A program made the position numbers and the translations under genes. Positions 6,417-18,604 of a stretch of 64,000 nt of DNA are shown in pieces. Under the pieces are notes generated by a model. That model was not told where the DNA came from. It did not search any database and was given only the letters and a program-made list of their open reading frames with translations. Each line of letters begins with the position of its first letter. The stretch's first letter is position 1. The stretch is from Roseovarius aestuarii (GTDB taxonomy: Bacteria > Pseudomonadota > Alphaproteobacteria > Rhodobacterales > Rhodobacteraceae): assembly GCA_027214255.1 (NCBI GenBank), contig JAPWHL010000008.1, positions 62,001 through 126,000 on the forward strand, read 5' to 3'.

Positions 6417-7367
6417 ATGCCCAGCTCCGCATCGACTATTGAACGCAGTGAAACTGTCCACCAACAGGCGCGACTGTTGGCGGGATGGCAGCAAACATAT
6501 TCGCAAATCGGTATGGGGCCGTTTTCCGGGTCTCTCAGCAGTACCGACCGCGGTACAGTCCGGTTCTTTGACGAACAAATGAACCGCGAGGTATTGCAAA
6601 CTGGCGGCGTGCCGGAAAACAAGATCGGCTTTGGCGTGCCCGTGAAAGTGGGAAGCAAAAGTTACCTATGTGGTGAATCCGTGGATGCCGGACAGTTGCT
6701 CGTGTTTTCGGGCTCGTCCGGCTTTGAATTCCTTTCTCCGCAGAACTTTCGCTTTTATGGCATCGAGATCGACGTTGACGGGATCAGCGATCCCAAACTG
6801 GCGCAAATGACATCCGAGCTACGTCAGATGTTTGCCCAAAGCAGACGCGCCATCACGCTCAACTCGGAAGAACGTTTCATCTTGACCGCGTCGCTGGACG
6901 CGGTCAATCGGCGTACTATGGGGCTTAAATCCGCTCTTGTCTCAGCGGATCAATCGCAAATCGACGCGCTGAACCGCCAGATGGTCGGCACAGTATTGGA
7001 TTGTCTCTCCAGAGATGTCACCAGTCCGGTGCACGGGGTAAAACACTGGGATATCGTGACCCAAATCCGTGATTTGGTGAAATCGAATCCACAATGCCCG
7101 CGCACCGTGGCCGAATTGACGGTTGAATTGGGCGTGTCCCGGCGGACCTTGCAAAACGCGTGCCGCGATATTCTGGACGTAAGCCCGGTACAGTATTTGC
7201 GGTCTCTGCGTCTAAGTGAAGTGCGCCAAACCATTGAAACCGCATCATCGGTGACAGACGTCGCGACGGAATATGGATTTTGGCATCTTAGTTACTTCGC
7301 CCGCGATTACCGCGTGATGTTTGGAGAATCCCCATCAAAAACGTTGGAACGATATCGACGGCAGTGA
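6417..7367 (+). CDS. AraC-family regulator, EutR-like
   Basis: A 316-aa regulator. The first 200 or so residues are a sensing domain resembling EutR-type AraC proteins (FFDEQMNREVLQTGG, GFGVPV, GQLLVFSG). The C-terminus holds the two helix-turn-helix units (TVAELTVELGVSRRTLQ and VTDVATEYGFWHLSYFARDY, ending in GESPSKTLERYRR). EutR itself responds to ethanolamine plus cobalamin. Here the gene is convergent with a B12-dependent dehydratase operon, ending six bases from it, so regulation of that operon is likely. The inducer cannot be read from the sequence. Confidence 0.8.
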   Translation: MPSSASTIERSETVHQQARLLAGWQQTYSQIGMGPFSGSLSSTDRGTVRFFDEQMNREVLQTGGVPENKIGFGVPVKVGSKSYLCGESVDAGQLLVFSGSSGFEFLSPQNFRFYGIEIDVDGISDPKLAQMTSELRQMFAQSRRAITLNSEERFILTASLDAVNRRTMGLKSALVSADQSQIDALNRQMVGTVLDCLSRDVTSPVHGVKHWDIVTQIRDLVKSNPQCPRTVAELTVELGVSRRTLQNACRDILDVSPVQYLRSLRLSEVRQTIETASSVTDVATEYGFWHLSYFARDYRVMFGESPSKTLERYRRQ

Positions 7368-7373
7368 TGCGGC

Positions 7374-7793
7374 TTAGTCCTTTGGGAACAACCCGCGCCG
7401 GTGATAGATTTCAGCCGCACGCGCCAAGAAATCCGCGATTTGTTCGGCGCCATAGTCGCGGCGCAGCATGTCGGCCTGATCCAGTAACGCCTGCTTGGAT
7501 TGCACACGGCCCGGGCGCAGCATTTCATATGTTTGCATTATGACGTCCTGCGGCACGTCAATCAGTTCTGCCCCACGCTCAAAATTTTGCGCCAAGGCCG
7601 CGCGTCCGGCGTCCCGCGCAATATCGGCCTGCGCGTGCAATGCAGCGCGCGTGATGCGCAAATCATCGATCCCGATCGAGCCATCCATGACCGCGTCCAG
7701 TGTGATCTGATCCAATGCAACGCCGCGCGGACCGCAAACGGCCTTGCCTTGCGTTTCAGCCATTGGATAGTCGGCGATGCCCGGCTTCTTCAT
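7374..7793 (-). CDS. pduE: Diol/glycerol dehydratase small subunit
   Basis: A 139-aa homologue of PduE, the small subunit of adenosylcobalamin-dependent diol dehydratase. Family features seen: a short N-terminal arm, the AETQG / PRGVALDQITLDAVMDG segment, LRITRAALHAQADIAR, the NFERGAELI and YEMLRPGR motifs, and a C-terminal helix AAEIYHRRGLF. Its ATG overlaps the stop of the large/medium fusion gene by four bases, which implies translational coupling and a fixed subunit ratio. It is the last gene of the operon. Confidence 0.9.
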   Translation of the reverse strand: MKKPGIADYPMAETQGKAVCGPRGVALDQITLDAVMDGSIGIDDLRITRAALHAQADIARDAGRAALAQNFERGAELIDVPQDVIMQTYEMLRPGRVQSKQALLDQADMLRRDYGAEQIADFLARAAEIYHRRGLFPKD

Positions 7794-10072
7794 TGCTGAT
7801 CCCCTGTCCCCAAAAATTGTAGCGTCACATCATCCGGTGTGCGCCCCGGCTCGACCAGGCCTGTCTCAATGGCGTGTATCAGCGCCACTTGCGCGTGATA
7901 GCGTGCACCCAATGCCTCACCTTGAGTGGGGACCAAAATCGGCTCGACCTCCTCCCCCCGGGTATAGGCCGCTGCGTTGCACCCCATAGCCTCGTAATGA
8001 TCCAGCGTTGTGATTGGTGCGTTAGAAAACAGTTCAAGATTGTTGTGCGGCAGGCGCGTTGCGGCGTGGATCACCGCCGTTCCTTTCGCTTGAATACCGA
8101 TGCCGATGCCCGACCCCGCCATCTGTGCTGCCGACAAACCCAGAAACGAGGTATCTGCGGTATGATGCATCCGCACGACCCGTGCCTTGGCTCCGCCCCT
8201 TTCAACCCCGTCGATCAGGCGGCGCAAAACGTCAGACAGGTTGTGCCCCGCCGTGGTCTGAAACAACTGCTGACCAAAGGCGGGGCTGATGCCGATGACC
8301 ACCTCGGTCGCGCTCTGGCCCTTGGCCGCCGGACCTGCCTCAAGATAGGTGATGCGCCGCGATTCCGCTTTCTTGTGGATGGCCTGCGCGCTGAGAACTT
8401 CGGGTTGACCAATCATGTCACGGATACCGTTGATTTGATCGCGCCGGTCCTCGTCCAGACGATAACCGGTGCCCGGACCAGCATACACGTTGGGATCGTT
8501 GATGGCGCTGATCACATGGCCGTCACGCACAATGGCCGAAGTTTGCAAGTAATCACCCGACACACGCAGCTTGACCAAATGCAACAGGTTCTGCGCCTCG
8601 GGCTGAAACCCGCGTTTGGCCAGCGCACGGATCACGTCGATCACGGTTAGCCCACGTTTTTCAATCGCCTCGCTGATCCGCGTTGTTGCACCGGTCGTAA
8701 AGCTGTCGGTTTCGCGCGACCCCGAGGCGACAACGACACTGGCCTTCATCGCCGCCGTCGGCTGGGCCAGATCAAGTTCCTCCAGCACGGCTGAAATCGC
8801 ATCGACTGCCCGCGCCCGCAAGCTGAGCGCGTCGGTTTCCGGCAAAGGCGTCAGCCCGCCATCCACCTCAAAATCACGTTGCAAGACCAGATAATCCTCC
8901 AACTCCTCGCCGTTAAACAGCGACGCATTGAACGAATTGTCATAAGACAGAATGGACCCAAACCCCGAACAGATGAAATCCGATCCCGCCATGAGAAACG
9001 GCATGATCTTGGCCCCAACGCGAATTTCGGATTCGGTTGCGCGGGCGTCATTGCCACTGGCGCATTCCAGATCAAGCCAGACAGCCAGAAGGTTTTCTGC
9101 CATCATTTCACGCATACCACCCGCCAATGTGGCGGTCAGCGGTGCACCATCAATGCCACCGTTCTGCGTGCCTTGCACCCCCATACCGCGTTGCAAGCAA
9201 AGGCAACGCGCCTCAAGATACAGCAGCGATTTTGCCTCGTGAAAGCCCATCAGAAGTTCAGCACCGCCCCCGGAGGTACAGCGCGCCTTGATCCCGCGAG
9301 ATGCATAGGCCGCGACCAGAAATGCCTTGGACCAAGGCGTATCGTCGCCATCGGTAAAGCTTTTCTCGGTACCATAGACCGAGACGGTTTCGGCATAAGA
9401 GGTAAAACCAGCCATCCCGATGCGCAGTTCCTCGGCCTCTTCGCTGGAACACTGGAACAAAGTGCCCCAGCGCCCGACACAAGACCCCACCACGCAGGCC
9501 AATGCGTTGGACCACGAATTACGCGACACGCGCATGGTGGTTTCCAATTCATCAAACCCCAGCCCCACAGCCACCGCTGCATCGGCGGCCAGTTGCAGTG
9601 GATCATCCTTGGCATTGGTCACATGCGCCTGATTGCCCGGAGTTTTGCGTGGGCGCATTCGGGCGTAAGCAAAGGTAATCTCCAACGTGTTCAGACGCGA
9701 CACCACATCGGCCAGCCGGGCAGGTGTCATGCCACGTGCCAGTCTGACCAGATCGGCGCGTGGCACGTGCATATCAACCAACATGCGCGCGATCACATCG
9801 GGATCCATATCCATCGCTTCGCGCGCGATATCCAAATCCAAATGATGATCCGCGATGAACGCATCGATCATATCAAAATCATGCGCCAGAACCCCATCCA
9901 TGCTGACAATCCGTCCCTGCGATATCTCAAGGCCAGGCTTGGGGTCATTGGGGCTGGAAAACGCAGCAAAACCGTTTGCGGCATCCTCGCGCGCGAATTT
10001 GTCCAGACGAAGCGGACGGTCGTCCCATTCGGAATAGCGACGCCAGCGGTTTGGAGGCGGTGTCTGGGTCAT
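7790..10072 (-). CDS. B12-dependent diol/glycerol dehydratase, large and medium subunits fused
   Basis: A 760-aa fusion. Residues 1 to about 550 match PduC (RRYSEWDDRPLRLD, NQAHVTN, FDELETT, SYAETVSVYGTE, VQGTQNGG, LDLECASGND, FICSGF); residues about 590-760 match PduD (TEVVIGISPAFG, ARVVRMHHTADTSF, GSGIGIGIQAKGT, NLELFSNAP). Residues equivalent to the Klebsiella active-site Gln141, His143, Glu170, Glu221, Gln296 and Asp335 appear kept, so the enzyme should be active. It removes water from a vicinal diol or similar compound by radical chemistry, giving an aldehyde. In enterics the two parts are separate genes. The ATG at 10072 follows GGGAG; a TTG at 10090 is in frame but has no support. No reactivase gene lies nearby. 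Confidence 0.93.
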   Translation of the reverse strand: MTQTPPPNRWRRYSEWDDRPLRLDKFAREDAANGFAAFSSPNDPKPGLEISQGRIVSMDGVLAHDFDMIDAFIADHHLDLDIAREAMDMDPDVIARMLVDMHVPRADLVRLARGMTPARLADVVSRLNTLEITFAYARMRPRKTPGNQAHVTNAKDDPLQLAADAAVAVGLGFDELETTMRVSRNSWSNALACVVGSCVGRWGTLFQCSSEEAEELRIGMAGFTSYAETVSVYGTEKSFTDGDDTPWSKAFLVAAYASRGIKARCTSGGGAELLMGFHEAKSLLYLEARCLCLQRGMGVQGTQNGGIDGAPLTATLAGGMREMMAENLLAVWLDLECASGNDARATESEIRVGAKIMPFLMAGSDFICSGFGSILSYDNSFNASLFNGEELEDYLVLQRDFEVDGGLTPLPETDALSLRARAVDAISAVLEELDLAQPTAAMKASVVVASGSRETDSFTTGATTRISEAIEKRGLTVIDVIRALAKRGFQPEAQNLLHLVKLRVSGDYLQTSAIVRDGHVISAINDPNVYAGPGTGYRLDEDRRDQINGIRDMIGQPEVLSAQAIHKKAESRRITYLEAGPAAKGQSATEVVIGISPAFGQQLFQTTAGHNLSDVLRRLIDGVERGGAKARVVRMHHTADTSFLGLSAAQMAGSGIGIGIQAKGTAVIHAATRLPHNNLELFSNAPITTLDHYEAMGCNAAAYTRGEEVEPILVPTQGEALGARYHAQVALIHAIETGLVEPGRTPDDVTLQFLGTGDQQ

Positions 10073-10181
10073 GGCTTCGATCTCCCTCAATTAACGTTGA
10101 GCACGTCAAGGCGCATCAAAACGATGCTGTGCGGCGGCCCTTCATTGATGTCAGCATGGTGGTCCCTGTCACATGATAAGT

Positions 10182-11354
10182 TCAGTTTACCGTCAAATCG
10201 CCGTTCACCGCCGCCAGATACACCTTGCGAAAACCTGCAATGTCCATCTTGCGCGGGTTTGACGCGGTTGATGGATCATCCATCGCCTTGGCAGCAATTT
10301 CATCCGCATCATGTCCGTCCAGCCCAAGATCCGCCAGCGTATGAGGGACATTCAGAGTTTTGCGAAACTCTAGCAGCCACGCCATGAAGCCGTCAAAGCC
10401 GCCATCTATGTGCAGGTGATGGGCGATAGCTTGGACATGAGTCTCGATTGACGGACGATTATAGGCCACCACGTAGGGCAGGATCACCGCATTCGCCAAA
10501 CCATGCTGAATATCATGGATCGCGCCCAGCGGATGAGCGATGGAATGCACCGCCCCCAGTCCTTTTTGGAATGCAACACCACCCATCATGGCGGCGGCGA
10601 ACATCTGCATTCTCGCCTCGATATTGGTCCCGTCCTTGCAGGCGAGCGGCAGGTTATCACGGATCAATCGCATGCTTTCCAAAGCGATGGCATCGGCCAT
10701 GGGATGAAAACGCGGCACGCAGTAGGTTTCAAAACTATGCGTAAAGGCATCCATCCCAGTCGCAGCCGTCAAGTTCGCGGGCAGGCCAACAGCCAGTTCC
10801 GGATCACCAATGACCACGGCGGGCAGCATCTTGGGATGGAAGATGATCTTTTTCGTCGCATCCGCTGAATTCGTCAAAACGGCAGCGCGCCCCACCTCCG
10901 AACCGGTTCCAGCGGTCGTGGGCACAGCAATAATCGGCGCGATTACGGATGCGTCGGCGCGGGTCCACCAATCACCGATATCCTCCAGATCCCAGACCGG
11001 GATCGTCTGACGCGCCATCAAGGCCACCAGTTTACCCACGTCCATCGCCGAACCTCCGCCGATGGTGATGATGCCATCATGCCCTCCATCCAGATAGGCG
11101 CGGATACCTTCAGCCAGATTGCGATCGGTGGGGTTACCTTGCACCTCTCCGAACACGGCCGCCTTGATACCTGCCGCCTGCAAGCCCGCCAGCGTACCGG
11201 TAATCATCTTGTGCGCCAGAAGGCCCTTGTCCGTTACCAACAAGGGTTGTTTCAAACCCAGTGCCGTGCAGTGCTCGACCAGCTCGGACAGTTTGCCCGC
11301 CCCTGCGCGGATTGTTGTGGGATAGGTCCAGTTCCCGCTTAGATCATAGTTCAT
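10182..11354 (-). CDS. Iron-containing alcohol dehydrogenase (group III)
   Basis: A 390-aa NAD(P)-dependent dehydrogenase of the iron-dependent family. Visible motifs are the nucleotide-binding GGGSAMDVGK, PTTAGTGSE, and metal-binding histidines in HSFETYC, HSIAHPLGA and HDIQHGLANA. In diol or glycerol pathways such enzymes reduce the aldehyde made by the dehydratase or oxidise an alcohol upstream of it. It sits between the dehydratase and the glutamine-synthetase-like gene, on the same strand, with about 110 bases to the dehydratase start. Confidence 0.9.
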   Translation of the reverse strand: MNYDLSGNWTYPTTIRAGAGKLSELVEHCTALGLKQPLLVTDKGLLAHKMITGTLAGLQAAGIKAAVFGEVQGNPTDRNLAEGIRAYLDGGHDGIITIGGGSAMDVGKLVALMARQTIPVWDLEDIGDWWTRADASVIAPIIAVPTTAGTGSEVGRAAVLTNSADATKKIIFHPKMLPAVVIGDPELAVGLPANLTAATGMDAFTHSFETYCVPRFHPMADAIALESMRLIRDNLPLACKDGTNIEARMQMFAAAMMGGVAFQKGLGAVHSIAHPLGAIHDIQHGLANAVILPYVVAYNRPSIETHVQAIAHHLHIDGGFDGFMAWLLEFRKTLNVPHTLADLGLDGHDADEIAAKAMDDPSTASNPRKMDIAGFRKVYLAAVNGDLTVN

Positions 11355-11378
11355 GTGGTGCCTTTCCTTTGGCCTGCG

Positions 11379-12710
11379 TCAGATCATCTCGAAGTATCGG
11401 TTCAATTCCCAATCCGACACGGCGGCCCGCGCTTGTGCCTGTTCAAACGCGCGACTGGCGGCGAAATGGTCAACGAATGTGTCTCCAAACCAATCTCGCG
11501 CCATGTCCGACTTGCGCAACCGTTCGGCCGCCTCGCCCAGTGAGTTGGGGAATTTCAGCGCGTCAGGAATGTCGGCCTCATAGGCGTTTGAAACAGTAGG
11601 AGCAGTCGGTTCGATACGCTCACGAATACCCGCCAACCCCGACGCGATGGCCGCGGCCTGCACCAGATAGGGGTTCGCATCCGCCGCTGGCGGGCGGAAT
11701 TCCACGCGCCGCGATTTAGCACTATCCCCTACAACACGCAGCGAGCAGGTCCGATTGTCAAAACCCCATGTTGCTCCGGTCGGAGCCCAGAAACCGGGGG
11801 CCAGTCGCGTAAAGGCGTTCACCGTAGGCGCGATCATCGCCAGCAGCTCGGGCATGTATTTCTGTTGGCCACCGATGAAATGACGCGCGGTTTCGGTCAG
11901 CTGGTCATCAGCGCCAGCGTCAAAGAATGCCGGTTTTCCGTCCTGTAACAACGACATATGCATGTGCCCACCACAGCCGGGCAAACCATCCATCGGTTTG
12001 GCCATATAGCACAGCATGCGATCATTCTCTTGGCCCCATGCTTTGCTGAAGGTTTTATAGATCACGGCACGGTCTGCCGCTTCCAACCCGACGGATGGGG
12101 AAAAGGCGAACTCCATCGCGCCTTCGCCCGCCTCGGGGTGGATCGCCTCAAGCGGCGTGTTCAACTGTTTGGACAGACCGATCATTCCGTCAAAGAAATC
12201 ATGATGTACCGCAGTGCGCAGCACCGAATACCCCCCCGTCGTCGGCGACAGCGCCTTGAGGTTGCGATAGCCTTTTTCATGCGCGCTTTCGGGTGTTTCA
12301 TCAAACACGTAGAACTCGTATTCAAACCCTGACAGAACCTCAAACCCGGCGTCGCGCGCGCGTTCGATCATACGTCCGGCCACGTTGCGCGGACAGATTG
12401 CCGCCCCCTCGCCGCTGAACTCCATCAGATAGAAATCGCGCCCGTCTCCGGGCAAGGTGCGGCGCGTTTCAGGCGCAACGCGCACGGTGTCATCGCGGAA
12501 CCCGTTGTGCCATCCGGTATAGGCATTCTCATACAGCTCGTCGCGGGAATCCCAGCCCAGAACGACCTGACAGAACACGCTGCCCTTTTCCAAGATCGAC
12601 GCAAATTTCGCCGCCGAAACGTATTTGCCACGTAGCAATCCATCCAGATCAACATACCCCAGCATGACGAAATCGTCCTGCGGTGCGGCCCCGTCTGTGT
12701 GCCCTGTCAT
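11379..12710 (-). CDS. Glutamine-synthetase-family ligase (possible gamma-glutamyl-amine ligase)
   Basis: A 443-aa glutamine synthetase homologue. The catalytic domain is recognisable by GFEYEFYVFDE, EAGEGAMEFAFSPS, GCGGHMHMSL, PTVNAFTRLAPGFWAP and RRVEFRPPAADANPYL, but it is shorter and more divergent than housekeeping GlnA and has no adenylylation loop that I can recognise. Relatives such as PuuA and GlnT attach glutamate to amines rather than to ammonia. Being inside a solute-uptake and alcohol-dehydration operon fits gamma-glutamylation of an amine substrate, though this is inference. GAGGGAG precedes the ATG at 12710. Confidence 0.82.
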   Translation of the reverse strand: MTGHTDGAAPQDDFVMLGYVDLDGLLRGKYVSAAKFASILEKGSVFCQVVLGWDSRDELYENAYTGWHNGFRDDTVRVAPETRRTLPGDGRDFYLMEFSGEGAAICPRNVAGRMIERARDAGFEVLSGFEYEFYVFDETPESAHEKGYRNLKALSPTTGGYSVLRTAVHHDFFDGMIGLSKQLNTPLEAIHPEAGEGAMEFAFSPSVGLEAADRAVIYKTFSKAWGQENDRMLCYMAKPMDGLPGCGGHMHMSLLQDGKPAFFDAGADDQLTETARHFIGGQQKYMPELLAMIAPTVNAFTRLAPGFWAPTGATWGFDNRTCSLRVVGDSAKSRRVEFRPPAADANPYLVQAAAIASGLAGIRERIEPTAPTVSNAYEADIPDALKFPNSLGEAAERLRKSDMARDWFGDTFVDHFAASRAFEQAQARAAVSDWELNRYFEMI

Positions 12711-12759
12711 GTGTTCGTCTCCCTCTCGTTAAACAAAGGGTTTTGGCATCAAATTCTGT

Positions 12760-13467
12760 TCACGCGCCCAGATAGGCGCGCGCCACTTCGGGGTCGTGCA
12801 GCAATTCCTGCGACGCACCTTCCAGCGCGATTGCACCGGTTTCCATGACATAGCCATGGTTGGACAGCGTCAGGGCAAGATTGGCGTTTTGTTCAACCAA
12901 AACAATCGACAAGCCTGAATCCCGAAGTGAAATGATCAGTTCCGAAATCTCGTCGATCAATTTAGGCGACAGGCCCAAAGACGGTTCATCCATCAACAGC
13001 ACCTTGGGGCGCGCCATCAATGCGCGACCCATCGCAACCATCTGCTGCTGCCCTCCACTTAACCGACCCGCAGCCTGGCCCTGTTTTTCACGCAGGATCG
13101 GGAAACGGTCGAACACGTCCTCGATCCCCCGCGTGATCTCGCCCCGGTCAGAATTCAGATAGGCCCCCATGCGCAGGTTTTCACGCACTGTCATCAGCTT
13201 GAAAATGCGCCGACCTTCGGGGACGTGAACGATGCCTTGCTCCACAATCGTGCTGGGCGCAGATCGGTCTATCCGGTTGCCATGATACAGGATTTCGCCC
13301 GACGAAGGCCGGATCAACCCCGATATTGCCTTCAGGATCGAGCTTTTCCCGGCCCCATTGGCACCGATCAACGTGATGATTTGGCCCTGTTCCAGTGACA
13401 GGGACACACCTTTGACCGCTTCGACCTTGTCATAGTGGATATGCAGGTTGCGCACCTCAAGTAACAT
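12760..13467 (-). CDS. livF: Branched-chain-type ABC transporter ATPase LivF
   Basis: A 235-aa ABC ATPase with Walker A GANGAGKSS, signature LSGGQQQ, Walker B VLLMDEPSLGLSP and a switch His-equivalent region (VEQNANLALTLSNHGYVMETG) typical of LivF. It works with LivG to power the LivHM permease. The start overlaps the livG end by 11 bases, showing tight coupling. The cargo here need not be an amino acid, since this transporter family also carries amides, urea and other small polar solutes. Confidence 0.92.
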   Translation of the reverse strand: MLLEVRNLHIHYDKVEAVKGVSLSLEQGQIITLIGANGAGKSSILKAISGLIRPSSGEILYHGNRIDRSAPSTIVEQGIVHVPEGRRIFKLMTVRENLRMGAYLNSDRGEITRGIEDVFDRFPILREKQGQAAGRLSGGQQQMVAMGRALMARPKVLLMDEPSLGLSPKLIDEISELIISLRDSGLSIVLVEQNANLALTLSNHGYVMETGAIALEGASQELLHDPEVARAYLGA

Positions 13468-14227
13468 TGGCTTGGCTCCCCAGATAGGCTTCGCGGACTT
13501 CGGGGTGCTCGCGCACCTCCGCGGGTGTGCCCTCGGCGATGATATTGCCGAAATTCAGCACCGTAATCTTGTCACACAGCCCCATAACCACCTTCATGTC
13601 ATGTTCAATCAGCATCACCGAAACGCCTGTGTCGCGAATACGGCGCACCAGATTGATCATCTGGCGCGATTCATCATTGTTCATTCCCGCGCAAGGCTCA
13701 TCCAGCAACAGCAACTGCGGCTCGGCGGCCAATGCGATAGCAATGCCCAGCGCCTTCTGATGGCCATGCGGCAAGCTGGAAGCGGTTTTGTCCGCAATAT
13801 CGCCAAGCCCCACAAAATCCAGAATCTCACGCGCGCGTTGTTCACTGTCGGCCTCGGCGCGCCGGGTTTTTCGGGTCCGCAAAAGGGAGCCAAAGTAGCT
13901 GTGTTGCGCGTGTAGATAGTTTCCGGCCATCACGTTCTTGACCACGGAAAACGACTTGAACAGTGTGACGTGCTGGAACGTGCGCACCAACCCCAGACGC
14001 GCAATTTCATGCGGCTTCAACCCGCTGATCTGATGTCCGCGAAACGTGATGTCGCCGCTCGTGACCGGATAACGCCCGCTGCACGCATTAAAAAACGTGG
14101 TCTTGCCAGCGCCGTTAGGACCAATCAGCCCGCGAATTTCGCCTTCTTCGACGGCCATGTCTATGCCGTCGATAGCGGTGATGCCGCCAAACGCCATGGT
14201 CAGGTTCTTGATCTCAAGTTGTTTCAT
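13457..14227 (-). CDS. livG: Branched-chain-type ABC transporter ATPase LivG
   Basis: A 256-aa ABC ATPase: Walker A GPNGAGKTT, Walker B LLLLDEPCAGMN and the LivG C-terminal tail. The signature segment reads LPHGHQKALGIA where LSGGQ is standard, a deviation common in LivG proteins, which often carry LPYG or similar. It lies between livM (14 bases upstream) and livF (overlapping), within the livKHMGF block. Confidence 0.92.
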   Translation of the reverse strand: MKQLEIKNLTMAFGGITAIDGIDMAVEEGEIRGLIGPNGAGKTTFFNACSGRYPVTSGDITFRGHQISGLKPHEIARLGLVRTFQHVTLFKSFSVVKNVMAGNYLHAQHSYFGSLLRTRKTRRAEADSEQRAREILDFVGLGDIADKTASSLPHGHQKALGIAIALAAEPQLLLLDEPCAGMNNDESRQMINLVRRIRDTGVSVMLIEHDMKVVMGLCDKITVLNFGNIIAEGTPAEVREHPEVREAYLGSQANVT

Positions 14228-14241
14228 CTGTGATGCCCCCT

Positions 14242-15210
14242 TTATTTGCCCGACCGCTGAAACAAGCGGCGCAGCCGTCCGGGGATGGTCTCTAACCCTC
14301 CGGGCAATAGGATAACTGTCGCGATCAAAACGACACCAAAGAACATCGTGCGGAAATAGCCCGTGGCGCGCAGCAATTCATCGACGATTGTCAGGCTAAT
14401 CGCGCCCGCAACGGGGCCGCCGACAGTGGTCAATCCCCCCACGATCACGTGGACCAACGCGAATTCCGACTTCCAGATGTCAAAGGATTTAGGGCTGATG
14501 TAGGTCTGGTAATGGGCGTATAGCGCACCGGTTAATCCAGCCAGCGTGCAAGCGACGGTAAAGGCAATAACCTTTTCACGGAAGACGTTGACGCCGGTGT
14601 GTTGGGCCAACAGTTCATTCTCGTGGATGCTCCAATACATCATCCCTGTGCGCGAACTGTTGGTGCGGTGGATAATCAGAACGATCAGCGCGACAAAGAA
14701 CAACGAAAGATAATAGTATGCCACCCGATCGGCAAAATCGATCTGCACAAAGCCCAGGTTGATCTTGGCCGGGTTGATGTCAAACACCCCGTCCCAACCG
14801 CCGAACAAATCTCGGAAATAGGCAAAATTGCGTTTGATCACCTCGCCCACGGCCCAGCTGGCCATAAAGAAATAGACGGCGCGCGTCCGCATCAGTGGGA
14901 CACTGATGATCAGGGCGATCAGGCCGGACATCAGCGCGCCCAACCACAGGCCATACCACATAGAAATGCCCAGCTTGGTCAGCAGCAACGCCGACGTGTA
15001 GGCCCCGATCCCCATGAAGCCTGCATGGGCAAAAGAGATAAACCCAAGCGACCAGATCATCCACATACTGGTCGCCAGCGCCACATTCAGCGTAATCGTA
15101 ATCGCTACATGGATCAGGTATGTGTCAAAGGCCACCAATGCGGGCAAAAGAAGCGCCACAATCAACAGACCGGTCCATGCGGCTTTGTGCGCGCGATCAA
15201 GATGTTGCAT
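14242..15210 (-). CDS. livM: Branched-chain-type ABC permease LivM
   Basis: A 322-aa polytopic permease with about eight to ten hydrophobic helices. The family motif region is present (GFISFAHAGFMGIGAYTSALL near the start; GGLTTVGGPVAGAI near the end). It pairs with LivH to form the membrane channel. Position between livH and livG is the standard order. Confidence 0.9.
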   Translation of the reverse strand: MQHLDRAHKAAWTGLLIVALLLPALVAFDTYLIHVAITITLNVALATSMWMIWSLGFISFAHAGFMGIGAYTSALLLTKLGISMWYGLWLGALMSGLIALIISVPLMRTRAVYFFMASWAVGEVIKRNFAYFRDLFGGWDGVFDINPAKINLGFVQIDFADRVAYYYLSLFFVALIVLIIHRTNSSRTGMMYWSIHENELLAQHTGVNVFREKVIAFTVACTLAGLTGALYAHYQTYISPKSFDIWKSEFALVHVIVGGLTTVGGPVAGAISLTIVDELLRATGYFRTMFFGVVLIATVILLPGGLETIPGRLRRLFQRSGK

Positions 15211-15245
15211 GTTTTAATTCCTGAAAGTTTGTCACCAACACGCGC

Positions 15246-16109
15246 CTAGTCCCAGTTCTGCCCGAACAGCCCCGAAGGCCGGAACACGAGCACCAGAAAA
15301 ATCACGACAAAGCTGAGGATCAAGGCGATATCGCCGCTGATGGTGGTGGTCACGACACTGTCGATCATGCCCAGAACCATCCCCCCGACCAGCGCCCCCA
15401 CAACACTGCCCAATCCGCCCATGATCACGATCATGAAGGCCTTGATTGTCGCCAGAAAGCCCATCGTCGGCACGATGGACAGCAAGGTGCCCATCATACA
15501 GCCCGCGATTGCGGCCATTGCGCTGCCCAACCCAAAGGCAATCCAATGAATCCGTTTGGTCTGCACACCCTGAAGCGCGCTGGTGTCGGGATCCTCGGCC
15601 ACAGCACGAATGGCCAAACCGGTGACGGTGAACCTCAGGAAAAACCACAACCCGGCGATCAACGCGGCAGAAACCGCTGAAATCACCATGCGCTCATAGG
15701 ACAGGTAGGTGCCCCCCATCAAAACCCCGCCGCTGACCGGGCCGGGGATACCTTTGACGGTGGTGCCGAACAATATCTGCCCTGTGCTGGAGATAATCAG
15801 AACCAACCCAAGTGACACAGCCAGCGAATAAAGGATGTTTTTGCCGTGCAAAGGCCGAAACAAGACAATTTGCAAAACCGCGCCGAAGCCAAAAATGATA
15901 ACCGCGCTGGCCACCACGCCCAGCCAATAAGGCAGGCCGAATTCCACATGCCAGTAGTACAGCGTGAACGCGCCCAACATGAACATTTCGCCATGGGCAT
16001 ATTGAATGATCCGCATCACGCCAAAAATCAGCGTCAAACCGATCGCAATCAGGGCATACATCAATCCCAGATTAAAACCTGTCAGTCCCATTTGTAGCAA
16101 TTCGGTCAT
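15246..16109 (-). CDS. livH: Branched-chain-type ABC permease LivH
   Basis: A 287-aa permease with multiple membrane helices, the IIQYAHGEMFMLGAF segment after the first helices and the GGLGSVVGALVGG motif typical of LivH. The ATG at 16109 has AGGAG about 11 bases upstream and puts the first hydrophobic helix where the family expects it; an earlier in-frame start near 16175 would add a non-conserved stretch and encroach on the hairpin behind livK. Confidence 0.9.
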   Translation of the reverse strand: MTELLQMGLTGFNLGLMYALIAIGLTLIFGVMRIIQYAHGEMFMLGAFTLYYWHVEFGLPYWLGVVASAVIIFGFGAVLQIVLFRPLHGKNILYSLAVSLGLVLIISSTGQILFGTTVKGIPGPVSGGVLMGGTYLSYERMVISAVSAALIAGLWFFLRFTVTGLAIRAVAEDPDTSALQGVQTKRIHWIAFGLGSAMAAIAGCMMGTLLSIVPTMGFLATIKAFMIVIMGGLGSVVGALVGGMVLGMIDSVVTTTISGDIALILSFVVIFLVLVFRPSGLFGQNWD

Positions 16110-16180
16110 GGCTGCGGGCACTCCTGAAGGGATGCAAAAACAACGCGCCACCAAGATGGCGGAACGACGGATCAAGACAA

Positions 16181-16209
16181 ATGCGGGGCCGGATCACCCT
16201 GCCCCGCAT
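16181..16209 (-). terminator. Intercistronic hairpin between livK and livH
   Basis: Perfect 9-base inverted repeat (ATGCGGGGC at 16181-16189, GCCCCGCAT at 16201-16209) starting 12 bases after the livK stop in the direction of transcription, with no T-run. Such stems behind binding-protein genes usually protect the upstream message and lower expression of downstream permease genes. Confidence 0.55.
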
Positions 16210-16220
16210 GAGATGTTGGA

Positions 16221-17465
16221 TTAATAATCGTCGGGCAGCGCCGGGAAACGAATGTCCGAAACCTCGGCCACGCCATCGTCAATGGTTGTCGTAAAGCAGT
16301 CGTAGATCCCTTGACGGTTCACCCCGAACGAGTTTTCGCCCGCCCATTTCACCTTGCCCACATAGGTGTCGTTCAACTCAACCTGGGCAAGTGCCTCGGC
16401 CACGGCCATCGTGTCGGTCGCGGTGCCCGCCATTTCCAGCGCGGCTTTTAGCGAATAGATCCACCACGAATAGTTGCCCGCCAAGGCATTGAAGCTGCCA
16501 AAGCGCTCGTTAAACCGGGCCTCAATTGCCTTTTGCGTATCTGTTGACGGCGACACGTTGGTGACTGGCAGGATGACGTCGGTTGCGTGCTCGCCCGCAA
16601 CCTCAAGAATGGTTTTGGTTTCAGACGCCGCCGGGGATGCGATTGGCCCTTTATAGCCCATTTCGCGCGCTGCCTTGATGATGCTGGCGGTGATGCCCGG
16701 AGGGGAAGGGCTGGTCACGATAAAGTCGGGCTTGTCGCGGATTGTTTTGGCGACGATCGGATAGAAATCCGTATCCTCCCAGTTGAAATATTCAACGCCT
16801 TTTTGTTCGATCCCATAATACTCCATCAGACGCTGGTACGAGAAGTGGCAATCAATGCCATCCTGATCGTCCGGCCCGATGAACGCGGCGGTTTTCAAGG
16901 CGTCCTTGCCATATTTGTCCTGCATATAGGGGATATAGGCAAAGCCCTGTTCATAGTCTGACATCTCGGCACGGAAATGCAGTGGATAGTCTTCGCCGAA
17001 CAGCTGCAAATAGCCCCAGCAGGCGACAATGGACAAAACATTCGCCGGTTCTGTAACTTGCAACATGCCAACGGTGCTGGCGGCTGCCTGCGAATAGACA
17101 AACTTGACCTCGTCCTGCTCAACCAGCCGCAAGGTCGCAGCACGGGAATCCGCGACTTCGCCTTTGGTGTCATAGTTGATCACTTCAAGCTGATGCGGTT
17201 CACCGTCGATCATCACGCCGCCCGCTTCGTTGATCACCGCTGCGCCGTCAACAAAGCCCTGCATCGTTGAATGGCCCCAATATGCGACTGGACCGGACAG
17301 GGGCACCGCGCCGCCGATCTTGATCGTTGGCATGGTCTGGGCCAAAGCACTTTTGGGAAGGATCGCGGGCGCGGCCAGCGCGCCGCCAATCGCCGCGGTT
17401 CCCGTCCGCAGCAACCTGCGGCGGGTGATCAGAGACGGTGGTGATTTCGATTTCCAAGTGTTCAT
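16221..17465 (-). CDS. livK: ABC transporter substrate-binding protein, LivK-like, Tat-exported
   Basis: A 414-aa periplasmic binding protein of the branched-chain amino acid/amide family (IKIGGAVPLSGP, QGFVDGAAVINEAGG, VYSQAAASTVGMLQV). The N-terminus carries a twin-arginine-type signal (TRRRLLRTG then a hydrophobic stretch and ALAQ). The ATG at 17465 is preceded by GGGAGGTG. It is the first gene of the operon that continues through the transporter, ligase, alcohol dehydrogenase and diol dehydratase, so its ligand should be the substrate of that pathway. The ligand itself cannot be deduced. Confidence 0.9.
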   Translation of the reverse strand: MNTWKSKSPPSLITRRRLLRTGTAAIGGALAAPAILPKSALAQTMPTIKIGGAVPLSGPVAYWGHSTMQGFVDGAAVINEAGGVMIDGEPHQLEVINYDTKGEVADSRAATLRLVEQDEVKFVYSQAAASTVGMLQVTEPANVLSIVACWGYLQLFGEDYPLHFRAEMSDYEQGFAYIPYMQDKYGKDALKTAAFIGPDDQDGIDCHFSYQRLMEYYGIEQKGVEYFNWEDTDFYPIVAKTIRDKPDFIVTSPSPPGITASIIKAAREMGYKGPIASPAASETKTILEVAGEHATDVILPVTNVSPSTDTQKAIEARFNERFGSFNALAGNYSWWIYSLKAALEMAGTATDTMAVAEALAQVELNDTYVGKVKWAGENSFGVNRQGIYDCFTTTIDDGVAEVSDIRFPALPDDY

Positions 17466-17677: not shown

Positions 17678-18604
17678 TCACCCCATAGCCTCGGCAACGA
17701 ATTGTTCCAGATCACTCTGCAACTGAGATGATATGTCATTGATGATACGAATGAATTCCCGGCTTTGCGGGCTCATCCGCGGCTCTTGATCGGCAATGGC
17801 CAGACGAAACGGCATTGCAGGCAGAAACGGGCGCGCCACAAGCCCCCGCATATCGGCATCCGACACCGTGAACCCGTCCAGCAGGCTGATGCCAACGTTG
17901 TGTTTGACCAGATCACGTAAAAATGCGCCTTGGCTGGCTTCGACCACGATTTCTGGCTCGGGATCGAGGGCTTCTACGACACGCCAAAGTCGGTCGGCAA
18001 AATCCAACGAGTTGTGATAGATCACCAATTTATGCCCATGCAGATCCTCAGCCGTGACAATGGCTTTTGTACTTAATGGATGCCCCACAGGCATAACACA
18101 CAGCGTCGGAGCCTCGGCGATGACCCGAAAACCGGCTGGTACGCTATGTGTCGTCGAATACAGCAATCCGACATCCACCCGCCCGGCATCCAGTTCAGAC
18201 AGGATAAGCTCGCGGCGCCATAATTCGATTTCCAACGTGGTTTCGGGGTACACTTTGCGGAATTCAATAACAGCGCGCGGCAAAATAGCGGCAGCAATTG
18301 CAGGAATCGCAGCGATCCGGACCCCCTGTGTCCGCCCGCGTTTGATTTCCAGAATTCGGTGCCGTGTATCCTCTAGCTCGCGTTCGACCCTTATAGCGGC
18401 CTCCAGCAAAAGCTGCGCCTTTGGCGTTGGATGGATACTACGCCCCAATGGCTCAAACAGGCTGAACTCAACCAGTTCTTCCAGACGTCTGATTGCCTTG
18501 CTGACAGTTGGTTGCGACGTGTTCAATTGCTCTGCGGCACGCGTGACCGACCCGCAATGCATCACAGCCACAAATATGCGCAAAAGGCGCGGATCAATAT
18601 CCAT
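17678..18604 (-). CDS. LysR-family transcriptional regulator
   Basis: A 308-aa LysR regulator: N-terminal helix-turn-helix (LRIFVAVMHCGSVTRAAEQLNTSQ... with PTVSKAIRRLEE), then the usual substrate-binding co-inducer domain. It is divergent from the peptide-type ABC operon that starts at 18803, with about 200 bases between starts. This is the classic LysR arrangement, so control of that operon and its gamma-glutamyltransferase is the simplest reading. It is followed by livK on the same strand, 212 bases on, which probably has its own promoter. Confidence 0.9.
   Translation of the reverse strand: MDIDPRLLRIFVAVMHCGSVTRAAEQLNTSQPTVSKAIRRLEELVEFSLFEPLGRSIHPTPKAQLLLEAAIRVERELEDTRHRILEIKRGRTQGVRIAAIPAIAAAILPRAVIEFRKVYPETTLEIELWRRELILSELDAGRVDVGLLYSTTHSVPAGFRVIAEAPTLCVMPVGHPLSTKAIVTAEDLHGHKLVIYHNSLDFADRLWRVVEALDPEPEIVVEASQGAFLRDLVKHNVGISLLDGFTVSDADMRGLVARPFLPAMPFRLAIADQEPRMSPQSREFIRIINDISSQLQSDLEQFVAEAMG

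What the first reader, a model, noticed from the sequence alone, without database searches (positions are those of the whole stretch)
6417..17465. B12 diol-dehydratase operon without reactivase or microcompartment, tied to a liv transporter and a glutamine-synthetase-like ligase
Nine minus-strand genes run livK-H-M-G-F, GS-like ligase, iron alcohol dehydrogenase, fused PduC-PduD, PduE, with an EutR-like regulator converging on them. Known diol/glycerol dehydratase loci carry a reactivating ATPase (DdrA/PduG type), usually a CoA-acylating aldehyde dehydrogenase, and often shell proteins; none is seen here. A solute-type ABC system with a PuuA/GlnT-like ligase suggests an amino alcohol or amino diol, perhaps gamma-glutamylated before or after dehydration. 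I do not know of a described pathway with this gene set. The pathway is inference; the gene content is seen.
Basis: partly seen in the sequence, partly recalled or inferred. Interest (0 to 1): 0.72.

Follow-up and report, generated by a model that had tools for sequence, protein, structure and literature searches.

The report
Repair-free B12 enzyme for amino diols
A bacterium carries a gene set for a vitamin-B12 enzyme that likely breaks down a small amino alcohol or amino diol, and its genome has no recognisable gene for the main subunit of the repair protein that well-studied relatives of this enzyme rely on, so it could show how such fragile enzymes do without repair.

Summary
The gene content is real: livKHMGF, GS-like ligase, iron ADH, fused PduC-PduD, PduE, convergent EutR-like gene. 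The reactivase profile has no match in this genome and none over cut-off in 34 other genomes with a fused dehydratase; it rings beside unfused ones. "No microcompartment" holds for the locus only: the genome has an aminopropanol-type (RMM/Aut) microcompartment locus on another contig. The dehydratase belongs to an alphaproteobacterial clade with Asp for Ser301 (37 of 37 loci; 239 of 239 listed proteins); Ser301 and Gln336 affect suicide inactivation by glycerol (PMC7674605, passages). Of 36 relatives' loci 21 carry aminopropanol-type kinase and/or class III PLP genes; shell proteins occur in 21 of 30 such genomes against 1 of 36 relatives without the dehydratase. Best reading: a reactivase-free dehydratase for an amine-bearing diol, here with its own importer and GS-like/ADH route. 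Substrate and chemistry are inferred. New variant of a known kind.

The parts
16221..17465 (-). LivK-type periplasmic binding protein; LIVBP ligand residues Ser79/Thr102/Tyr202/Glu226 (roles recalled) read A/G/S/A
   Evidence: PF13458 146 bits; alignment to 1z15 E 1.7e-10; these stretches near-invariant in 6 of 6 LivK compared
15246..16115 (-). LivH-type permease
   Evidence: PF02653
14242..15210 (-). LivM-type permease
   Evidence: PF02653
13457..14227 (-). LivG-type ATPase
   Evidence: PF00005, PF12399; NCBIfam LivG 273 bits, cut-off 362
12760..13467 (-). LivF-type ATPase
   Evidence: NCBIfam LivF 240 bits, cut-off 441
11379..12710 (-). glutamine-synthetase-like ligase, predicted gamma-glutamyl-amide ligase; Trp at the Glu327 position
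   Evidence: PF00120 323 bits, the 4 NCBIfam GS-family models matched are all under cut-off; PGFWAP in window and 4 of 4 relatives, PGFEAP only in L060 of the 7 GS-family proteins of the genome
10182..11354 (-). iron alcohol dehydrogenase, related to methanol and 1,3-propanediol dehydrogenases
   Evidence: PF00465/PF25137; best solved matches 8zrl methanol dehydrogenase E 3.1e-71 and 3bfj 1,3-propanediol oxidoreductase E 1.3e-65
7790..10072 (-). fused PduC-PduD B12 dehydratase subunits (ATG start at 10072; open from 10090)
   Evidence: PF02286 687 bits, PF02288 79 bits in one frame; 9vi2 E 5e-197
9149..9151 (-). codon of Asp308, the Ser301 position of Klebsiella diol dehydratase
9044..9046 (-). 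codon of Ala343, the Gln336 position of Klebsiella diol dehydratase
7374..7793 (-). PduE, dehydratase small subunit, overlaps PduCD by 4 bp
   Evidence: PF02287 137 bits; overlap
6417..7367 (+). AraC-family regulator, EutR-like, convergent
   Evidence: EutR model 120 bits, cut-off 319; 45-55% homologues in 5 of 6 liv- or Fe-ADH-linked relatives

Best explanation
The locus encodes an alpha-beta-fused relative of B12-dependent diol dehydratase with its own Liv-type importer, glutamine-synthetase-like ligase and iron alcohol dehydrogenase, and it likely dehydrates an imported amine-bearing 1,2-diol (simplest candidate 3-amino-1,2-propanediol) to an amino aldehyde, probably without help from a reactivase. 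Shown: gene content, fusion, conserved core residues, Asp at position 301, no DdrA-type reactivase gene in the genome. Inferred: Asp301 would hold the substrate's ammonium group near C3; the Fe-ADH would change the redox state of the aldehyde; the GS-like enzyme would gamma-glutamylate the free amine or amino alcohol downstream; the EutR-like protein would sense the substrate and/or B12. The fusion and the loss of Gln336, each linked in print to slower inactivation with glycerol, would make the reactivase dispensable. The clade is predicted to serve the same family of amines as the aminopropanol (RMM/Aut) microcompartment, beside which close relatives sit and which this genome keeps on another contig.
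For: Asp at 301 in 37 of 37 distinct loci (window included; L017 and L023 are near-copies) and 239 of 239 listed homologues (two capped lists of the best 120, window included), Ser in 3 of 3 canonical and 3 of 3 S-type fused loci. Gln141, His143, Glu170, Glu221, Gln296, Asp335, Ser362, Phe374 kept in 37 of 37. PF08841 over cut-off in 0 of 35 distinct genomes with a fused dehydratase; positive controls ring. Ser301/Gln336 hydrogen-bond glycerol's 3-OH; S301A and Q336A lower kinact with glycerol; an alpha-beta fusion slowed inactivation in lysate (PMC7674605, passages). Homologues of aminopropanol kinase (6ef6 E 8e-82, title) and aminopropanol dehydrogenase (6ci8/6ci9 E 1e-88 / 4e-88, titles) beside relatives. 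Shell proteins in 21 of 30 Asp-type genomes against 1 of 36. LivK and GS-like lack residues recalled as binding alpha-amino acids and ammonia.
Against: No substrate was tested. Nine of 36 loci have none of kinase, PLP, acylating ALDH, shell or liv genes in the stretch seen. The S-type fused group keeps Ser301 and also lacks a reactivase, so Asp301 cannot be the reason for doing without one. The published mutants are Ala, not Asp, at 301; with 1,2-propanediol S301A and Q336A raised kinact (0.025 to 0.052 and 0.058 per min), and the double mutant stayed at 0.66 against 1.15 with glycerol; the fusion result came from lysate only (PMC7674605, passages). Ordinary chemistry on 3-amino-1,2-propanediol gives 3-aminopropanal, which a vicinal kinase/phospho-lyase pair could not use (my inference). 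The PLP enzyme could be a plain aminotransferase, as PMC6620236 proposes (passages). The five full liv-type relatives have no shell proteins at all. DdrB and other repair proteins were not searched.
Confidence: 0.42

Rival explanations
1. It is a glycerol or 1,2-propanediol dehydratase after all; Asp301 only changes how the 3-OH is held, and the fused, inactivation-resistant enzyme feeds aldehyde to the Fe-ADH or to the same acyl-CoA step as the aminopropanol pathway.
For: Best solved match is glycerol dehydratase and all eight core residues are kept. 1,2-propanediol and 1-amino-2-propanol could converge on propanal (inference). The authors of PMC4207490 allow a bifunctional compartment (passages). 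The Fe-ADH matches 1,3-propanediol oxidoreductase.
Against: Asp301 is invariant in the clade and absent from the three canonical enzymes compared. None of the ten window proteins scanned is a further dha or pdu product.
Confidence: 0.25
2. It is a lyase for vicinal amino alcohols (1-amino-2-propanol or 2-amino-1-propanol), making the aldehyde and ammonia directly and so replacing the kinase and PLP steps.
For: In 5 of 5 liv-type relatives' loci the aminopropanol dehydrogenase homologue is present while kinase, PLP enzyme, ALDH and shell genes are absent from the stretch, and their genomes have no shell proteins.
Against: Ser301 faces the C3 side in the literature (PMC7674605, passages), not where a C1 or C2 amine would sit. 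This genome keeps kinase and PLP genes as well, and 21 of 36 relatives' loci hold one or both.
Confidence: 0.15
3. The substrate is a larger polyol or glycosyl-glycerol; Asp301 hydrogen-bonds extra hydroxyls.
For: Sugar-type ABC transporter genes sit beside or near the dehydratase in L018, L038, L039, L073 and L074, which fall in one clade with L021.
Against: Polyamine-type carriers in 21 of 36 loci and aminopropanol-type kinase/PLP genes in 21 of 36, two of them sugar-type as well (L038, L039).
Confidence: 0.12
4. The operon is a decaying remnant without a function of its own.
For: The SDR gene between Fe-ADH and PduCD in 5 of 5 liv relatives is missing here.
Against: All nine frames are open and the core residues kept; a homologue of that SDR (63% to L003's, 81% to L005's) is on C55.
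Confidence: 0.03

Closest known systems
Klebsiella diol/glycerol dehydratase (PduCDE, DhaB)
   Same: Same three subunit families and the same eight core residues
   Different: Alpha and beta fused; Ser301 to Asp, Gln336 to Ala; no DdrA-type reactivase in the genome
RMM2 locus (Rhodococcus/Mycobacterium microcompartment with diol dehydratase homologs, PMC4207490, passages)
   Same: Relatives of this dehydratase stand beside homologues of aminopropanol kinase and SDR, class III PLP enzyme, acylating ALDH and shell genes
   Different: In the window it is in a separate liv/GS/Fe-ADH operon. In the Roseovarius loci the dehydratase is co-directional with the shell genes; [quoted passage not shown] The mycobacterial sequence was not compared here
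Fused dehydratases of Mesorhizobium loti and Mycobacterium smegmatis (Liu 2010, as told in PMC7674605, passages)
   Same: Natural alpha-beta fusion
   Different: Asp301, absence of reactivase and amine context are not told in the passages seen
Gamma-glutamyl-amide routes (PuuA, GlnT/GMAS, IpuC; recalled)
   Same: A GS-family ligase beside an importer and a dehydrogenase
   Different: The gamma-glutamylputrescine synthetase model gives 204 of 650 bits; no gamma-glutamyl hydrolase among the ten proteins scanned
Ethanolamine utilisation (EutR)
   Same: AraC regulator resembles EutR
   Different: 120 bits against a cut-off of 319; no ethanolamine ammonia-lyase among the ten proteins scanned

Membership tests
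B12-dependent diol/glycerol dehydratase | Large, medium and small subunits | tested here: met
   PF02286, PF02288, PF02287 all over Pfam cut-off; in NCBIfam only the large subunit is over its cut-off
B12-dependent diol/glycerol dehydratase | Core residues Gln141, His143, Glu170, Glu221, Gln296, Asp335, Ser362, Phe374 | tested here: met
   37 of 37 distinct loci
B12-dependent diol/glycerol dehydratase | Ser301/Gln336 substrate-side pair | tested here: not met
   Asp and Ala here; Asp in 37 of 37, position 336 Ala 32, Thr 4, Cys 1; 3 of 119 listed more distant homologues keep Gln336
B12-dependent diol/glycerol dehydratase | Reactivase large subunit DdrA/PduG in the genome | tested here: not met
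   PF08841 none; controls positive
B12-dependent diol/glycerol dehydratase | Activity on 1,2-propanediol or glycerol | not testable with these tools
   needs enzyme assay
RMM/Aut aminopropanol microcompartment (as a feature of this locus) | Shell proteins and acylating ALDH in the locus | tested here: not met
   none among the ten proteins scanned; present on C55
RMM/Aut aminopropanol microcompartment (C55 of the same genome) | Shell hexamer, pentamer, trimer, acylating ALDH, class III PLP, kinase, SDR | tested here: met
   PF00936 twice, PF03319, PF00171, PF00202, SDR 81% and kinase 73% to L005 genes
Glutamine synthetase | Curated GlnA score and Glu327 equivalent | tested here: not met
   GlnA 219 bits, cut-off 429; Trp in place of Glu (role recalled)
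Gamma-glutamyl-amide ligase | Ligation of an amine to glutamate | not testable with these tools
   needs assay
Branched-chain amino acid Liv transporter | Curated Liv scores and alpha-amino-acid pocket | tested here: not met
   all five subunits under the Liv cut-offs; pocket residues changed in a weak alignment (E 1.7e-10; roles recalled)
EutR | Curated equivalog score 319 | tested here: not met
   120.5 bits

The most novel reading that the evidence does not exclude
An unrecognised class of B12 enzymes, amino-diol dehydratases: an Asp at the Ser301 position grips the ammonium of 3-amino-1,2-propanediol-like substrates, and subunit fusion with loss of Gln336 makes the enzyme self-sufficient without the reactivase on which known diol dehydratases depend; alphaproteobacteria run it either beside aminopropanol microcompartments or, as here, in a free cytosolic route with a dedicated importer and GS-like ligase.
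Probability: 0.3. Interest if true: 0.8.

Novelty: new variant of a known kind. Interest (0 to 1): 0.6.

Why it matters
Suicide inactivation and reactivase dependence limit B12 dehydratases in biotechnology, and others have altered the very positions (Ser301, Gln336) and made the fusion that this clade has by nature (PMC7674605, passages). A natural clade without a reactivase makes the question of how to survive without one directly testable. It also gives a sequence handle, Asp301, on the open question of what diol dehydratase homologs do beside amino-alcohol microcompartments.

Tried and rejected
Rejected: that Asp301 explains the missing reactivase; the S-type fused enzymes (L044, L045, L075) keep Ser301 and their genomes lack it too. 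Rejected: a reactivase elsewhere in the genome. Rejected: 'no microcompartment' for the organism. Rejected: glutamylation before dehydration as a rule of the clade. Looked for an N-terminal encapsulation extension on dehydratases of shell loci: none seen against liv-linked ones, while the acylating ALDH has a tail that looks amphipathic by eye. No Rfam match at the gathering threshold in the window, so no cobalamin riboswitch seen. AlphaFold models of the kinase (mean pLDDT 53) and SDR (69) were poor and were used only to read titles of PDB entries that sequence searches had already found; by fold alone the SDR ties with FabG enzymes. The mycobacterial RMM2 sequence was not reached. The PLP enzyme's nearest solved relatives are putrescine and ornithine aminotransferases, with ethanolamine-phosphate phospho-lyase further down, so 'phospho-lyase' is not shown. 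PMC8217296 (passages) has no mention of diol dehydratase or Alphaproteobacteria in its main text. L017 and L023 are near-copies kept as two. My ORF caller loses some genes to shadow frames (PduE in several loci, the C55 hexamer), so neighbour counts are lower bounds; some contigs are only 4-5 kb. In the tree L004 was put in the liv group although its contig ends before any liv gene, and the tool warns of long branches near L040.
Full report
Observation. The nine minus-strand genes and the convergent AraC gene are there at the stated coordinates. PduC and PduD are one 760-aa frame. Gaps between neighbouring genes run from -11 to 109 bp and PduE overlaps PduCD by 4 bp, so one transcript is plausible (inference). 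The genome has one PF02286 gene.

Reactivase. PF08841 (DDR) has no match in the window's genome. In one search it was sought in 28 genomes that hold a relative: none over the cut-off, one below it (G408, 19.3 bits against 24.6). In one search it was sought in 11 more: one match, G1113 (547 bits), the only one of the 11 with an unfused dehydratase. In one search it rang in the two plasmid records with unfused dehydratases (Klebsiella, Halomarina) and not in two alphaproteobacterial plasmids with fused ones (their chromosomes were not searched). After dropping duplicates (G114, G714), a fragmented gene (G322), a partial gene (G575) and the unfused G1113, that is 0 of 35 genomes with a fused dehydratase, the window's included; 32 are of the Asp type and 3 (G109, G152, G561) of the Ser type. 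Several are metagenome assemblies and may be incomplete. The small subunit DdrB was not searched.

Active site. Aligned to Klebsiella-type enzymes, the window has Gln141, His143, Glu170, Glu221, Gln296, Asp335, Ser362 and Phe374 unchanged, but Ser301 is Asp and Gln336 is Ala (residue numbers from PMC7674605, passages, and for Phe374 recalled). Asp301 is in 37 of 37 distinct loci where the site is covered; position 336 is Ala 32, Thr 4, Cys 1. Among proteins listed by two database searches (best 120 of 7989 and of 7900 matches, one protein in both lists), 120 of 120 and 119 of the 119 new ones have the Asp, and 3 of the 119 keep Gln336; in the best 120 around a Ser-type fused query, 0 have it. 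PMC7674605 (passages) says that Ser301 faces the 3-OH of glycerol in the inactivating orientation, that S301A and Q336A lower the inactivation constant with glycerol (1.15 to 0.22 and 0.081 per min; double mutant 0.66), that with 1,2-propanediol the same changes raise it, that a fused alpha-beta enzyme was inactivated more slowly in lysate, and that natural fusions occur in Mesorhizobium loti and Mycobacterium smegmatis. That an Asp there would bind an ammonium group is my inference.

Neighbourhoods. Of 36 other Asp-type loci (fetched), 21 carry a kinase and/or class III PLP gene of the kind described below, 21 a polyamine-type transporter gene, 19 the SDR, 17 an isochorismatase-family hydrolase, 10 shell genes, 9 the acylating ALDH, 6 a sugar-type transporter gene (one, in L006, a lone ATPase gene away from the dehydratase), 6 the Fe-ADH, 5 the liv set, 4 the GS-like gene and 0 a reactivase; 9 have none of kinase, PLP, ALDH, shell or liv genes. 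The five liv loci (L003, L006, L013, L014, L024; Roseobacteraceae, Paracoccaceae and Rhizobiaceae) have no kinase, PLP, ALDH or shell genes in the stretch, but all five have the SDR, which the window's operon lacks. L026 has kinase and PLP domains fused in one protein.

What those genes are. The kinase matches 6ef6 at E 8e-82, titled 'Structure of the microcompartment-associated aminopropanol kinase'. The SDR matches 6ci8 and 6ci9 (E 1e-88 and 4e-88), titled microcompartment-associated aminoacetone dehydrogenase and RMM aminopropanol dehydrogenase. So the shell loci look like the RMM/Aut aminopropanol kind (named in PMC4207490, PMC6620236 and PMC8007038, passages). How that pathway runs is unsettled: PMC6620236 proposes an aminotransferase leading to lactaldehyde; I favour kinase then PLP lyase (inference from the kinase title). 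PMC4207490 reports diol dehydratase homologs in RMM2 and interprets that compartment as not using them, or as possibly bifunctional.

The same genome. Shell proteins are on contig C55: PLP, acylating ALDH, trimers, pentamer (PF03319), hexamer, PotDABC, SDR (81% to L005) and kinase (73%) in a row, with no dehydratase among the ORFs called there. At genome level shell proteins occur in 21 of 30 Asp-type genomes and in 1 of 36 same-family genomes without PF02286 (Fisher p 3e-9, not corrected for kinship). Of three Ser-type fused genomes one has them. The five full liv-type relatives lack them; L004's genome has them. In the tree the window pairs with liv-type L003 (98/85), next to four shell-linked Roseovarius rows (six rows 100/98), inside an 11-row clade whose other rows are four liv-linked ones and L004 (Fe-ADH seen, contig ends before liv). 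Enzymes 84-88% identical to the window's thus sit in both settings, which argues for one substrate class in both (inference).

Other parts. LivK aligned to LIVBP (E 1.7e-10) has Ala, Gly, Ser, Ala where LIVBP has Ser79, Thr102, Tyr202, Glu226 (ligand roles recalled); these stretches are near-invariant in 6 of 6 LivK. The GS-like protein is under every NCBIfam cut-off it matches and has Trp where the genome's GlnA-like protein L060 has Glu (Glu327, role recalled); 1 of 7 GS-family proteins of the genome has that Glu. The Fe-ADH's best solved matches are methanol dehydrogenase and 1,3-propanediol oxidoreductase, its best NCBIfam model 4-hydroxybutyrate dehydrogenase, under cut-off. The regulator resembles EutR but is far below its cut-off.

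Mechanism offered. Liv imports an amine-bearing diol; the regulator senses it; the fused dehydratase turns it into an amino aldehyde by the usual radical OH shift; Fe-ADH changes the redox state; the GS-like enzyme caps the amine. Only gene content, residues and co-occurrence are shown. The weakest step is the exact substrate: ordinary chemistry on 3-amino-1,2-propanediol would not feed the kinase/PLP pair, so the two routes would be parallel branches for related amines. The rivals are a plain glycerol/propanediol dehydratase, a direct amino-alcohol lyase and a polyol dehydratase.

Novelty. Natural fusions and RMM2 dehydratase homologs are in print. I therefore call it a new variant of a known kind.

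Noticed in passing
Own genome C55:60385-72296 (L085, L086): Aminopropanol-type (RMM/Aut) microcompartment locus with hexamer, pentamer, trimers, PotDABC, SDR and kinase but no dehydratase.
   Followed up: yes
Own genome C55:72531-81667 (L086): Directly beside it: GS homologue, a regulator that looks RpiR-like by eye, N-formylglutamate-amidohydrolase-family protein (PF05013), two isochorismatase-family hydrolases (the second 62% to the hydrolase that flanks dehydratases elsewhere) and a second liv-type transporter; looks like another amide or amine route.
   Followed up: partly
L044, L045, L075: A second group of fused dehydratases with Ser301 but Ala336, about 42-47% identical to the window's, also without reactivase in their genomes; the tree puts it with the canonical enzymes (midpoint root), so fusion without reactivase may have arisen twice.
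   Followed up: partly
L067:12297-13025, L071:12160-12888: Class-I glutamine amidotransferase / peptidase C26 family gene between the cysteine hydrolase and PotD beside Asp-type dehydratases; possibly a gamma-glutamyl hydrolase.
   Followed up: partly
L026:4265-6619: Kinase (PF01636) and class III PLP enzyme (PF00202) fused in one 784-aa protein next to the dehydratase.
   Followed up: partly
L038, L039 (Shinella and Agrobacterium plasmids): Asp-type dehydratase inside a sugar-type ABC transporter operon with SDR, kinase and class III PLP genes.
   Followed up: partly
window 17678-18604: LysR gene upstream of livK on the same strand; it has no match upstream of livK in the five liv relatives, so it may belong to the divergent transporter genes next to it.
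   Followed up: partly
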